A stretch of 64,000 bases of DNA from Tepidiforma thermophila (GTDB lineage: Bacteria; Chloroflexota; Dehalococcoidia; Tepidiformales; Tepidiformaceae). Under the pieces are notes generated by a model. That model was not told the DNA's origin, made no database searches, and saw only the letters and a list, made by a program, of their open reading frames with translations. The stretch is from positions 1,674,001-1,738,000 of the forward strand of contig NZ_PDJQ01000001.1 of the NCBI RefSeq assembly GCF_002563855.1, given 5' to 3'. This document shows, piece by piece, positions 38,377 through 42,388 of this stretch; position 1 is the stretch's first letter, and the number at the start of each line of letters is the position of its first letter. Made by a program: the position numbers and the translations under genes.

Positions 38377-40092
38377 TCAGCGGCCCGCTTCGATCGCCTT
38401 GGAGCGGGCCGCGGCGATCGCGGCTGCCGCATCGGCAGGGCTGAGCACCCGGGTTTCGCCCGTCGCGCGGTCGCGTACTTCGACGCCGCCGCGCTCCAGG
38501 GCCCGCGGGCTCACCGTCACCCGCATCGGCATGCCGAGGAGGTCCGCGTCCTTGAACTTGATGCCGGGCGACTCGTCGCGGTCGTCGATGAGCGGCTCGA
38601 GGCCCGATCTCTGGAGCGCCTGTTCAAGCTCAGAAAGCGCGGCATCGACCGCCGCCTCCCCGGCGCCGATAACAACGACATGGACGTCGAACGGGCTGAC
38701 CTCCCACGGCCAGCGGATGCCGTCGGCGTCATGGTTGGCTTCGATGATCGCCGCAAGCAGGCGCTCCACGCCGATGCCGTAGCAGCCCATCACGCACGGC
38801 CGGCGCTCCCCGTGCTCGTCGAGGTAGTACACCCCCATCTTCTCGGCGTAGAGCGTGCCGAGCTTGAAGACGTGGCCCATTTCGATCCCCCGGCGGGTCT
38901 CGAGGGCCTGGCCGCACGTGCGGCACGCGTCGCCCGTCCGCGCCAGCGCGATCTCGGCGACCAGCGTCGCCTGCCAGTCGCGGCCGTGGTTCACGTTCCG
39001 GAGGTGGTAATCCGGCTCATTCGCCCCGCCGACCAGGTTCGGGGAATCGACGGCGCTCCGGTCGGCGATAACCGGGATGCCTGAAACGCCGACCGGCGAA
39101 GCGCTCCCGGCGACCAGCCCGAGCTCCCGGACAGTTGCCTCGTCCATCGGCTCAACCTCGCGCGCACCGAGGGCGTTCTTCAGCTTGACCTCGTTCACCT
39201 CGAGGTCGCCGCGAATTGCCACGAAGACCGGCTTTCCGTCGGCTTTGTAGAACACCGCCTTCAATGTCTGCCGGGGCTCCACACCGAGGAACTCCGCGAC
39301 CTCGGCAATGGTCCGCCTGCCCGGGGTGTGCACGCGCTCCATCGGCGCCGGCTCGCCGGGGACGGCAGGGGCCGGGACAAACTCAGCCTTCTCGGCGTTC
39401 GCGGCATACCCGCAGCCCGGGCAGAGCAGGATCGTGTCCTCGCCGCTTTCGGTCAGGAAGACGAACTCCTGCGAGTCCTTACCCCCGATGGCGCCCGAGT
39501 CGGCAGCAACCGGGATGACCGGCACCCCGGCCCGGCGGAAGATGCGCTGGTAGGCTGCGAAGGCGGCATCGTACGAGGCGTCGAGGGTGTCCCAGCCGGT
39601 ATCGAAGCTGTAGGCGTCCTTCATGGTGAACTCGCGCAGCCGGATCAGCCCGCCGCGCGGCCGCGGTTCGTCGCGGAACTTTGTCTGAATCTGGTAGAGC
39701 GTGACCGGCAGGTCGCGGTAGCTCTGGATAGCGCGCGACGCGAGGTATGAAATGACCTCCTCGTGAGTCGGTCCGAGGGCGAACTCTCGCTCCTTCCGGT
39801 CGAAGAGACGGAACAGCGTCTGGCCCATGAGCGCCGCCCGGCCGCTCTGCTCCCAGAGCTCGATTGGGTGGAGCGCAGGGAGGTGGACTTCCAGCGCGCC
39901 GGAACGGTTCATCTCTTCCCGGATAATCCGCTCGATGCTCCGGACCACGCGCCAGCCGAGCGGTGTGAAGCAGTACAGCCCGGCCGCGAGCGGCACCACC
40001 AGCCCCGCCCGCAGCAGCAGGCGGTGACTGGGCAGCTCAGCCTCTGCCGGCGCCTCGCGCAAGGTCTTCACGAGCAGCTGGCGTATGCGCAT
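38377..40092 (-). CDS. proS: Prolyl-tRNA synthetase, bacterial type with editing insertion
   Basis: A 571-residue class II synthetase. Motif 2 is TKFRDEPRPRGGLIRLREFTMKDAYSF, and the insertion between motifs 2 and 3 (about 235-385) is the INS/YbaK editing domain that clears Ala-tRNA(Pro). A CPGC and CRTCG pair suggest zinc or structural cysteines. Motif 3 (GIGVERLLAAIIEANHD) and an anticodon-binding C-terminal domain follow. Length matches E. coli-type ProRS. dtd lies 66 bp upstream on the same strand, another quality-control factor. Confidence 0.95.
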   Translation of the reverse strand: MRIRQLLVKTLREAPAEAELPSHRLLLRAGLVVPLAAGLYCFTPLGWRVVRSIERIIREEMNRSGALEVHLPALHPIELWEQSGRAALMGQTLFRLFDRKEREFALGPTHEEVISYLASRAIQSYRDLPVTLYQIQTKFRDEPRPRGGLIRLREFTMKDAYSFDTGWDTLDASYDAAFAAYQRIFRRAGVPVIPVAADSGAIGGKDSQEFVFLTESGEDTILLCPGCGYAANAEKAEFVPAPAVPGEPAPMERVHTPGRRTIAEVAEFLGVEPRQTLKAVFYKADGKPVFVAIRGDLEVNEVKLKNALGAREVEPMDEATVRELGLVAGSASPVGVSGIPVIADRSAVDSPNLVGGANEPDYHLRNVNHGRDWQATLVAEIALARTGDACRTCGQALETRRGIEMGHVFKLGTLYAEKMGVYYLDEHGERRPCVMGCYGIGVERLLAAIIEANHDADGIRWPWEVSPFDVHVVVIGAGEAAVDAALSELEQALQRSGLEPLIDDRDESPGIKFKDADLLGMPMRVTVSPRALERGGVEVRDRATGETRVLSPADAAAAIAAARSKAIEAGR

Positions 40093-40158: not shown

Positions 40159-40623
40159 TCAAGCCCGGCGCGGCCGCTCGAGGTCGGCGGAGTCGACAAT
40201 GAGGGTCACCGGGCCGTCGTTGACCAGCTCGACCTGCATCTCCGCACCGAAGACGCCCGTCTCACAAGGGATGCCGGCCGCGCGAATGGCAGCGACGAAC
40301 GCCTCATAGAGTGGCCTGGCCTGCTCCGCAGGCGCAGCAGCCTCGAATGATGGACGGCGCCCCCGGCGCACATCGCCGTAGAGGGTGAACTGGCTGATGC
40401 AGAGTACGGCCCCGCCGATACTGGCCAGGTCGAGGTTCATGTGCCCGGCACCATCATCGAAGATTCGGAGCCCTGTAACTCGCCCGGCCAGTCGCGCGGC
40501 CGTCGCCGCGTCGTCATGGCGGGCGATGCCGAGCAGCACGACCATCCCCGGTCCGATACTGGCAACCTGCTCCCCGGCGACCGACACCGCTGCCCGCCGG
40601 ACGCGCTGGATCACCGCCCGCAT
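40159..40623 (-). CDS. dtd: D-aminoacyl-tRNA deacylase
   Basis: A 154-residue Dtd that removes D-amino acids (and Gly from tRNA-Ala). The signature SQFTLYGD and the C-terminal [15 protein letters not shown] (usually NxGPVT; here NDGPVT) are both present. Length is standard. It overlaps the upstream TetR gene by one base, so it may be transcribed with TetR and proS. Confidence 0.94.
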
Positions 40624-41258
40624 CAGCCGGCAGCCGCGGGTTCGCCGGGTGCTACCGGGAGGAGCCGCTGGACCGCGCGGATGACCCGTCCCTGGAACCG
40701 CTCATCGCGCACGGCCTCCGGGAACGCGTCGCCCGTTTCGATTTCCAGCCGCAACAGGTACCCGGTGACTGCAGCTGCGAACGTTTCGACGAGTTCTGCG
40801 GCGTGCGGCCCCGCTGCCTGGAAATGCTTCATGAGCGCCGTCCGCCACCGAGCGCGCGACGCGTTGCGGAGCGCAATCGCCGTTTCATCGGAGCTCAGCG
40901 CCTGCCGTGCAACCAGCCGGAGGTACGTAAAGTTTTCGGCCGAGATGTGAATCGTCGCGCGCACCAGCTCCGCCAGCCGTTCGGCGGTCAGCGGAGCCCC
41001 GGGCTCGCCAACCGGGAACGACCCTGCCGGAGCCTCGTTCCAGAGCGCCTCGAGGAGGTGACGCTTTGTCGGGAAGTAGTAGAACACGCCGGCGTCCGAT
41101 ATGCCGCAGCGCCGCGCGATCGAGCGCACGGACGTCCCGTCGAAGCCGTCCCGGGCGAAGGCCTCCATCGCTGCCGCCAGGATGCGGGCACGCGTGTCGT
41201 CCCGCGGTGTATCGTTTGCGTGGGCCTCGAACCCGCGTGCCTCGCGTTCACCCGCCAC
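40623..41258 (-). CDS. TetR family transcriptional regulator (downstream copy)
   Basis: A 211-residue repressor. The N-terminal HTH ([48 protein letters not shown]) is followed by a ligand-binding helical domain. GTG 41258 has GGAGGG five bases upstream, inside the end of the preceding TetR gene (11-bp overlap). The Arg-rich tail suggests nothing further. Target unknown; dtd is directly downstream. Confidence 0.85.
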
Positions 41259-41856
41259 AGCAGCCCTCCATCCCGAGGGCGCAGCGGATGGCGAACCGGA
41301 TACGGTCCTTGAACACGGGCTGGGCCAGCACCTCCCTTGCGGCGTTGCCGTACGTCATGACCGCATCCCACATGAACCCCGAGAGGGTATGAAAAAGGAG
41401 GTCCGCCGCTGTCTCGCAATCCCCCTCGTACCCGGCCGAGCCTAGGATGGATGCCACCTCGGCCCGGTAACGGGCCTCGCCGTCGTGAAAGTACTCGATG
41501 GCTTCCGGGTCGCCCCGGAGCTGCTGCTGGGTGAGGATGCGGACAAGCGGAGCGTTCTCCGCCCACCAGTCGAACATCGCGGAGAGCACGTCGACCGCCT
41601 CATCCAGCGAGCGTGCCACCGGCGGGGTGCGGTAGTCGGGCTGAACCATCAGCGCCCGGAAGAGGTCGTACTTGCTGGGGAAATAGTAGTGAACGGCCGG
41701 GTCGCTCACGCCCGCCCGGTTCGCGATCATCCGCACTGACGTACCATCGAAGCCGCGTTCGCTGAACAGTTCGCGCGCCGCCTTGAGGATTCGGTCGCGG
41801 GTAGCGATGGCCTCGGGGGTCCTGGGAGTGCGGACCGGCTGGACCTCACGCGCCAT
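41248..41856 (-). CDS. TetR family transcriptional regulator (upstream copy)
   Basis: A 202-residue repressor with [50 protein letters not shown]. The C-terminal domain ends with two Cys (MEGCCGG). Its HTH is closely similar to that of the next gene, suggesting tandem duplication followed by divergence in the ligand domain. Overlapping by 11 bp, the two are cotranscribed. Ligands and operators are unknown. Confidence 0.85.
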   Translation of the reverse strand: MAREVQPVRTPRTPEAIATRDRILKAARELFSERGFDGTSVRMIANRAGVSDPAVHYYFPSKYDLFRALMVQPDYRTPPVARSLDEAVDVLSAMFDWWAENAPLVRILTQQQLRGDPEAIEYFHDGEARYRAEVASILGSAGYEGDCETAADLLFHTLSGFMWDAVMTYGNAAREVLAQPVFKDRIRFAIRCALGMEGCCGG

Positions 41857-41913
41857 GGGCGGAGTATATCCGCCGCCGGGGGCATGACAGAAGCGTCGAC
41901 CTCCGCAACCAGC

Positions 41914-42189
41914 TTAGGACGCTGCCGCCGCCTCTCCGGTCGACTCCGATGCCGAGCCGACTGTTGCCTCGCTGCCCGAGGACTCGCTGTCGTTCACCGC
42001 CGATAACTTGTTCCGGCTATCAGTGATGTACCAGCCGCTACCCTTGAACACGATCGGGGGGGCGTGAAGCACGCGCTTGGCCGTGCCCTTGCCGCATTCT
42101 TCGCACGGGTGCGTGGTAGGCGCATCGAAACCCTGGCGCAGCTCATACGTCGCATCGCAGGCCGGGCAGTGGTACTCGTAGGTCGGCAA
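41914..42189 (-). CDS. FmdB-family zinc-ribbon protein
   Basis: A 91-residue protein. The first 55 residues are the FmdB regulatory zinc ribbon (MPTYEYHCPACDATYELRQGF...PCEECGKGTAKRVL, four Cys, then PPIVFKGSGWYITDSR). The tail is Ser/Glu/Ala-rich and probably disordered. The TTG start follows GAGGTG by five bases. It is preceded by a perfect CIRCE element and a promoter, so heat-shock control by HrcA is predicted. Its cellular role is not known; FmdB was named from amidase gene clusters. Confidence 0.85.
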   Translation of the reverse strand: MPTYEYHCPACDATYELRQGFDAPTTHPCEECGKGTAKRVLHAPPIVFKGSGWYITDSRNKLSAVNDSESSGSEATVGSASESTGEAAAAS

Positions 42190-42223: not shown

Positions 42224-42253
42224 ATGTTCGGCCGGTTAGCACTCACGTGTCAA
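42224..42253 (-). promoter_or_regulatory. Promoter of fmdB overlapping CIRCE
   Basis: Minus-strand TTGACA (42253-42248), a consensus -35, lies inside the CIRCE spacer; an 18-bp spacer separates it from -10 GAACAT (42229-42224). Confidence 0.55.
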
Positions 42254-42266
42254 GAGTGCTAACCGG
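42232..42266. promoter_or_regulatory. CIRCE heat-shock operator (HrcA binding site)
   Basis: TTAGCACTC-N9-GAGTGCTAA (42236-42262) matches the CIRCE consensus exactly. The arms extend to 13 bp (CCGGTTAGCACTC / GAGTGCTAACCGG). It lies 43 bp before fmdB on one side and 34 bp before tRNA-Ser on the other. Confidence 0.88.
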
Positions 42267-42287
42267 GCGCCTCGGGCCGCCCATCGG

Positions 42288-42293
42288 TACAAT
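42288..42293 (+). promoter_or_regulatory. -10 of tRNA-Ser
   Basis: TACAAT lies 7 nt before the tRNA 5' end. No convincing -35; the region adjoins the CIRCE right arm. Confidence 0.5.
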
Positions 42294-42300
42294 GGTGGAT

Positions 42301-42388
<88 letters not shown>

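What the first reader, a model, noticed from the sequence alone, without database searches (positions are those of the whole stretch)
42224..42293. Perfect extended CIRCE controlling an FmdB zinc-ribbon gene
CIRCE normally precedes groESL or hrcA/dnaK. Here a 13-bp-arm CIRCE has the -35 TTGACA inside its spacer and directs a small FmdB protein on one side and abuts the tRNA-Ser promoter on the other. It suggests FmdB is a heat-shock protein in this lineage.
Basis: partly seen in the sequence, partly recalled or inferred. Interest (0 to 1): 0.66.

Follow-up and report, generated by a model that had tools for sequence, protein, structure and literature searches.

The report
HrcA-controlled FmdB/Ruc chaperone gene
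A Chloroflexota bacterium of the genus Tepidiforma keeps a small zinc-ribbon protein gene under the same heat-shock repressor switch as its main chaperones, an arrangement already shown for the related chaperone Ruc in Mycobacterium tuberculosis and conserved across this bacterial family.

Summary
A perfect CIRCE (HrcA operator) lies at 42236-42262, between divergent fmdB and tRNA-Ser genes, with the fmdB -35 TTGACA inside its spacer. The genome (genus Tepidiforma, Chloroflexota) encodes HrcA and has only five CIRCE sites. The other four precede groEL, hrcA-grpE, groESL and dnaJ, so fmdB sits in a textbook HrcA regulon. The link is conserved: 33 of 34 family genomes with fmdB have the site just upstream, as do five other families of the class and many Actinomycetota. 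In 26 of those 33 the spacer carries TTGAC, with a -10 (xAxxAT) 18 bp on. HrcA binding should therefore block the -35 of fmdB until heat or misfolded protein relieves it. The 'extended' 13-bp arms are not conserved and are probably incidental. The FmdB has cysteines at 8, 11, 29 and 32 and a disordered hydrophilic tail, like M. tuberculosis Ruc (Rv0991c), an HrcA-repressed, heat-induced, redox-activated holdase (PMC7448276). This is therefore a new member of a known kind. Less expected is that fmdB heads a co-directional tetR-tetR-dtd-proS cluster, with fmdB-dtd conserved across the class. No expression data were available.

The parts
42236..42262 (.). CIRCE operator, 27-bp core TTAGCACTC-N9-GAGTGCTAA, perfect; arms pair out to 42232-42266
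42248..42253 (-). -35 TTGACA of the fmdB promoter, inside the CIRCE spacer
   Evidence: TTGAC in the spacer of 26 of 33 family fmdB CIRCEs
42224..42229 (-). -10 of the fmdB promoter (GAACAT), 18 bp from the -35; conserved pattern xAxxAT
41914..42189 (-). fmdB (TTG start, 91 aa): FmdB-family zinc ribbon with C8, C11, C29, C32 and a disordered tail; Ruc homologue
   Evidence: PF09723 1.3e-12; TIGR02605 1.9e-15
42301..42388 (+). divergent tRNA-Ser(TGA); its -10 TACAAT is at 42288-42293, outside CIRCE
41248..41856 (-). tetR1, downstream of fmdB on the same strand, with a possible promoter of its own (41890-41863)
40623..41258 (-). tetR2
40159..40623 (-). dtd, D-aminoacyl-tRNA deacylase; fmdB-dtd order conserved in the class
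38377..40092 (-). proS, prolyl-tRNA synthetase; end of the co-directional cluster

Best explanation
The site is a functional HrcA operator that controls fmdB as one of five members of a classical HrcA/CIRCE heat-shock regulon in a Tepidiforma species. HrcA dimers bind CIRCE and cover the -35 of the fmdB sigma-A promoter, which lies inside the operator spacer, so RNA polymerase is excluded. When heat or misfolded protein engages the chaperonin that keeps HrcA active, repression is lifted and FmdB is made together with GroEL, GroES, GrpE and DnaJ. FmdB is most likely a Ruc-type holdase: a zinc ribbon holds it inactive, and oxidation of its four cysteines releases zinc and frees the disordered tail to bind unfolded protein for DnaK. 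Shown here: the operator, the promoter geometry, the presence of HrcA, the regulon membership, the conservation, and the family and cysteine pattern of FmdB. Inferred from M. tuberculosis and B. subtilis work: repression, heat induction and redox-activated chaperone activity.
For: Perfect CIRCE with 0.00 expected in the window. HrcA present (E 1.3e-43). Five CIRCE sites in 2.74 Mb, the others before groEL, hrcA-grpE, groESL and dnaJ. In five other genomes of the genus every CIRCE whose locus was examined precedes fmdB, hrcA or groEL. CIRCE (up to 3 mismatches) 37-78 bp upstream of fmdB in 33 of 34 family genomes with an fmdB, and with at most 1 mismatch in five other families of the class. TTGAC in the spacer in 26 of 33, with A/A/T of a -10 conserved at an 18-bp spacing. 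A scan of GTDB genomes for CIRCE plus an fmdB start gave at least 117 stretches, mostly Actinomycetota, where I estimate about one by chance; 52 of 74 complete proteins have Cys 8, 11, 29 and 32. Model: folded residues 1-48, low confidence after residue 50. M. tuberculosis ruc: HrcA-repressed, heat-induced, oxidation-activated chaperone with C8, C11, C29, C32 (PMC7448276).
Against: No binding, transcript or heat-shock data exist for this organism. The -10 of the window copy (GAACAT) is weak. Genus g13 keeps the CIRCE but lost the TTGACA, and one family genome (G017) lacks the CIRCE. Redox chaperone activity is shown only for the M. tuberculosis homologue; FmdB-family proteins may vary in function.
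Confidence: 0.88

Rival explanations
1. CIRCE is the head operator of a longer heat-shock operon fmdB-tetR1-tetR2-dtd-proS, so that D-aminoacyl-tRNA deacylase and prolyl-tRNA synthetase are also HrcA-controlled.
For: All genes lie on one strand: fmdB-tetR1 gap 57 bp, tetR1-tetR2 and tetR2-dtd overlap, dtd-proS gap 66 bp. The order is conserved in the family, and fmdB-dtd in 16 of 20 loci from other families of the class. No terminator-like site was found between fmdB and tetR1.
Against: tetR1 has a promoter-like site of its own directly before its start. Two regulators interrupt the cluster. CIRCE stays with fmdB in loci that lack dtd downstream (L042, L047, L056), and fmdB-dtd is often found without CIRCE, so the operator follows fmdB and not dtd.
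Confidence: 0.2
2. HrcA at this site regulates the divergent tRNA-Ser instead of, or as well as, fmdB.
For: The tRNA-Ser -10 is conserved 25 bp or so from CIRCE in the genus, so its -35 region abuts the operator edge.
Against: No -35 motif on that strand. The CIRCE-tRNA distance varies from 25 to 82 bp, and tRNA-Ser was not detected within 600 bp in several family members that keep CIRCE-fmdB. The TTGACA in the spacer serves fmdB.
Confidence: 0.06
3. A chance or relic CIRCE-like palindrome with no regulatory role.
For: None beyond the lack of expression data.
Against: Zero expected in the window; conserved in 15 genera while flanking DNA is not.
Confidence: 0.01

Closest known systems
M. tuberculosis ruc (Rv0991c), HrcA regulon member (Becker et al. 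2020, PMC7448276)
   Same: FmdB-type protein with C8, C11, C29, C32 and a disordered C-terminus; HrcA operator upstream overlapping the promoter element; shares the regulon with groES/groEL.
   Different: M. tuberculosis uses SigH in addition to HrcA, with overlapping SigH and HrcA sites; here a housekeeping-type TTGACA promoter lies inside the CIRCE spacer. The M. tuberculosis operon partner is rv0990c (PMC8557902); here the neighbours are tetR-tetR-dtd-proS. Chaperone activity is not tested here.
Classical HrcA/CIRCE heat-shock operons (groESL, hrcA-grpE-dnaKJ)
   Same: Same operator sequence TTAGCACTC-N9-GAGTGCTAA, HrcA encoded, groESL and hrcA-grpE controlled in the same genome.
   Different: Target gene is fmdB; the operator lies upstream of the inferred start of transcription, over the -35.
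M. xanthus groEL2 promoter (PMC9040617)
   Same: CIRCE overlaps the -35 region, so promoter overlap as such is known.
   Different: Target is groEL2 and sigma-32 is involved.

Membership tests
HrcA/CIRCE regulon | Operator matching TTAGCACTC-N9-GAGTGCTAA near a promoter | tested here: met
   0 mismatches, -35 in the spacer
HrcA/CIRCE regulon | HrcA encoded in the genome | tested here: met
   PF01628, E 1.3e-43, itself behind a CIRCE
HrcA/CIRCE regulon | Core chaperone genes share the operator | tested here: met
   groEL, hrcA-grpE, groESL, dnaJ (dnaJ site has 2 mismatches)
HrcA/CIRCE regulon | Derepression on heat shock or on loss of HrcA | not testable with these tools
   needs RNA data
FmdB/Ruc family (PF09723, TIGR02605) | N-terminal zinc ribbon with four cysteines at 8, 11, 29, 32 | tested here: met
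FmdB/Ruc family (PF09723, TIGR02605) | Hydrophilic disordered C-terminal tail | tested here: met
   alignment; mean pLDDT 46-57 after residue 50
Ruc redox chaperone | Oxidation-dependent holdase activity and DnaK cooperation | not testable with these tools
   shown for M. tuberculosis only (PMC7448276)

The most novel reading that the evidence does not exclude
In Tepidiformales the HrcA regulon reaches beyond chaperones into translation quality control: readthrough from the CIRCE-embedded promoter makes dtd (D-aminoacyl-tRNA deacylase) and proS heat-inducible together with the Ruc-like holdase.
Probability: 0.18. Interest if true: 0.45.

Novelty: new member of a known kind. Interest (0 to 1): 0.32.

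Why it matters
It extends HrcA control of the Ruc/FmdB redox chaperone from mycobacteria to Chloroflexota and, by the genome scan, to many Actinomycetota. This suggests that the pairing is old or has arisen repeatedly, and it gives a functional label (heat-shock holdase) to a very common protein usually annotated only as an FmdB zinc-ribbon or regulatory protein. The conserved -35 inside the CIRCE spacer gives a simple, testable repression geometry.

Tried and rejected
The 'extended 13-bp CIRCE' as a special feature: rejected, because the extension is not conserved. tRNA-Ser as the main target: rejected on variable distance and absence near several conserved CIRCE-fmdB sites. A palindrome before tetR1 (GGCGGA-N5-TCCGCC) as a conserved TetR operator: found only in the window copy. 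A strict CIRCE-plus-fmdB pattern over 400 genomes of the phylum found only three; it misses imperfect arms and variant start codons seen, so it is a lower bound and was not used as a negative. No solved structure matches FmdB by sequence. Literature searches for CIRCE+HrcA+FmdB found nothing; the link came through Rv0991c.

Full report
What is there. The window holds one CIRCE, with no mismatch, at 42236-42262 (none expected in shuffles). Its arms pair over 13 bp (42232-42244 and 42254-42266), and its 9-bp spacer contains, on the minus strand, TTGACA at 42253-42248. Eighteen bases further lies GAACAT (42229-42224), then a 5' leader with GAGGTG and the TTG start of a 91-residue ORF (42189-41914). 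That ORF is an FmdB-family zinc ribbon (PF09723, E 1.3e-12; TIGR02605, E 1.9e-15). On the other side tRNA-Ser(TGA) starts at 42301 with its -10 TACAAT at 42288-42293.

Which organism. Loci L132 (Tepidiforma flava) and L146 (Tepidiforma sp.) align with the window collinearly over about 8 kb at 76-83% DNA identity. The window is therefore a Tepidiforma or a very near relative (Chloroflexota). The genome is one contig of 2.74 Mb, 98.6% complete.

The regulon. The genome has an hrcA (E 1.3e-43). With up to 3 mismatches there are five CIRCE sites; the reversed control pattern gave one match at that level, and none at up to 2 mismatches. The other four precede a solo groEL (L001), hrcA-grpE (L002), groESL (L004) and dnaJ (L005, 2 mismatches), as read from the ORFs and confirmed by Pfam. 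In five other genomes of the genus, every CIRCE whose locus was examined lies before fmdB, hrcA or groEL. An operator shared only with chaperone genes is the strongest sign that fmdB belongs to the HrcA regulon.

Conservation. In the family, 34 of 37 genomes have a clear fmdB, and 33 of these 34 have a CIRCE with up to 3 mismatches 37 to 78 bp before it, in 15 genera. In 26 of the 33 the spacer begins TTGAC, and the columns that fit a -10 hexamer (A at position 2, A at 5, T at 6) are conserved at an 18-bp spacing; the table counts 27 because it includes L071. Bases outside the 9-bp arms carry little information, and the number of extra paired bases ranges from 0 to 6, so the 13-bp arm of the window is probably incidental. 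Genus g13 has lost TTGAC but kept the CIRCE. Outside the family, five further families of the class have CIRCE with at most 1 mismatch before fmdB (L042, L047, L052, L055, L056), and many do not.

Breadth. By my estimate about one would be expected by chance. Most of the 80 listed are Actinomycetota (Acidimicrobiia, Solirubrobacterales, Nanopelagicales), with a few Chloroflexota, Ignavibacteriales, Myxococcales and Armatimonadota; MAG taxonomy is as deposited. All have the MPxYE(Y/F) start and most have GSGFY-type FmdB sequences. Of 74 complete proteins, 52 have cysteines exactly at 8, 11, 29 and 32. The list is truncated and is not a census.

What it probably does. In M. [quoted passage not shown] Ruc rises strongly at 45 C and in an hrcA mutant. 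It holds zinc through C8, C11, C29 and C32, is disordered in its C-terminal half, and when oxidised prevents aggregation and aids refolding by DnaK (PMC7448276). That paper reports the family in all 22 Chloroflexi genomes examined and next to chaperone genes in several phyla. The Tepidiforma protein has the same four cysteine positions, the same VFKGxG(W/F)Y junction, and a hydrophilic tail that the model leaves unstructured. The best reading is therefore a Ruc-type holdase gene under HrcA. The geometry says that HrcA occludes the -35; the steps of heat-triggered release are inferred from work on other bacteria (the GroE-HrcA cycle of B. subtilis, from general knowledge).

Novelty. CIRCE over a -35 is known (M. 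xanthus groEL2, PMC9040617) and HrcA control of ruc is known. What is added is the extension to Chloroflexota, the depth of conservation, and the promoter embedded in the spacer across about 14 genera. The one open lead with more surprise is the co-directional tetR-tetR-dtd-proS cluster downstream. fmdB-dtd is adjacent in 16 of 20 loci from other families of the class. Since CIRCE is retained with fmdB where dtd is absent, and fmdB-dtd often lacks CIRCE, fmdB is the more likely target, and co-regulation of dtd and proS remains a minority hypothesis.

Noticed in passing
window 42189-38377 (minus); L008-L060: fmdB is followed on the same strand by dtd (D-aminoacyl-tRNA deacylase), in the family usually with two tetR genes between and proS after; fmdB-dtd adjacency occurs in 16 of 20 loci from other families of the class.
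   Followed up: partly
L072, L089, L091, L123, L131: CIRCE-linked FmdB homologues in Solirubrobacterales lack all four zinc-binding cysteines while keeping the rest of the domain. Cys-to-Ser Ruc variants are active without oxidation in vitro (PMC7448276), so these could be redox-independent natural versions.
   Followed up: no
L001 1501-1527 and relatives: The CIRCE before the solo groEL also carries TTGACA in its spacer (ATTGACAGG), and that exact spacer recurs in other genera, so the embedded -35 is a shared design in this lineage.
   Followed up: partly
window 41863-41890 (minus): Promoter-like CTGTCA-16-TATACT directly before tetR1, inside a GGCGGATATACTCCGCC palindrome; the palindrome was not found in other genus members.
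   Followed up: partly
G007, G010, G013: Three family genomes lack a clear fmdB; all are 78-86% complete, so absence may be due to gaps.
   Followed up: no
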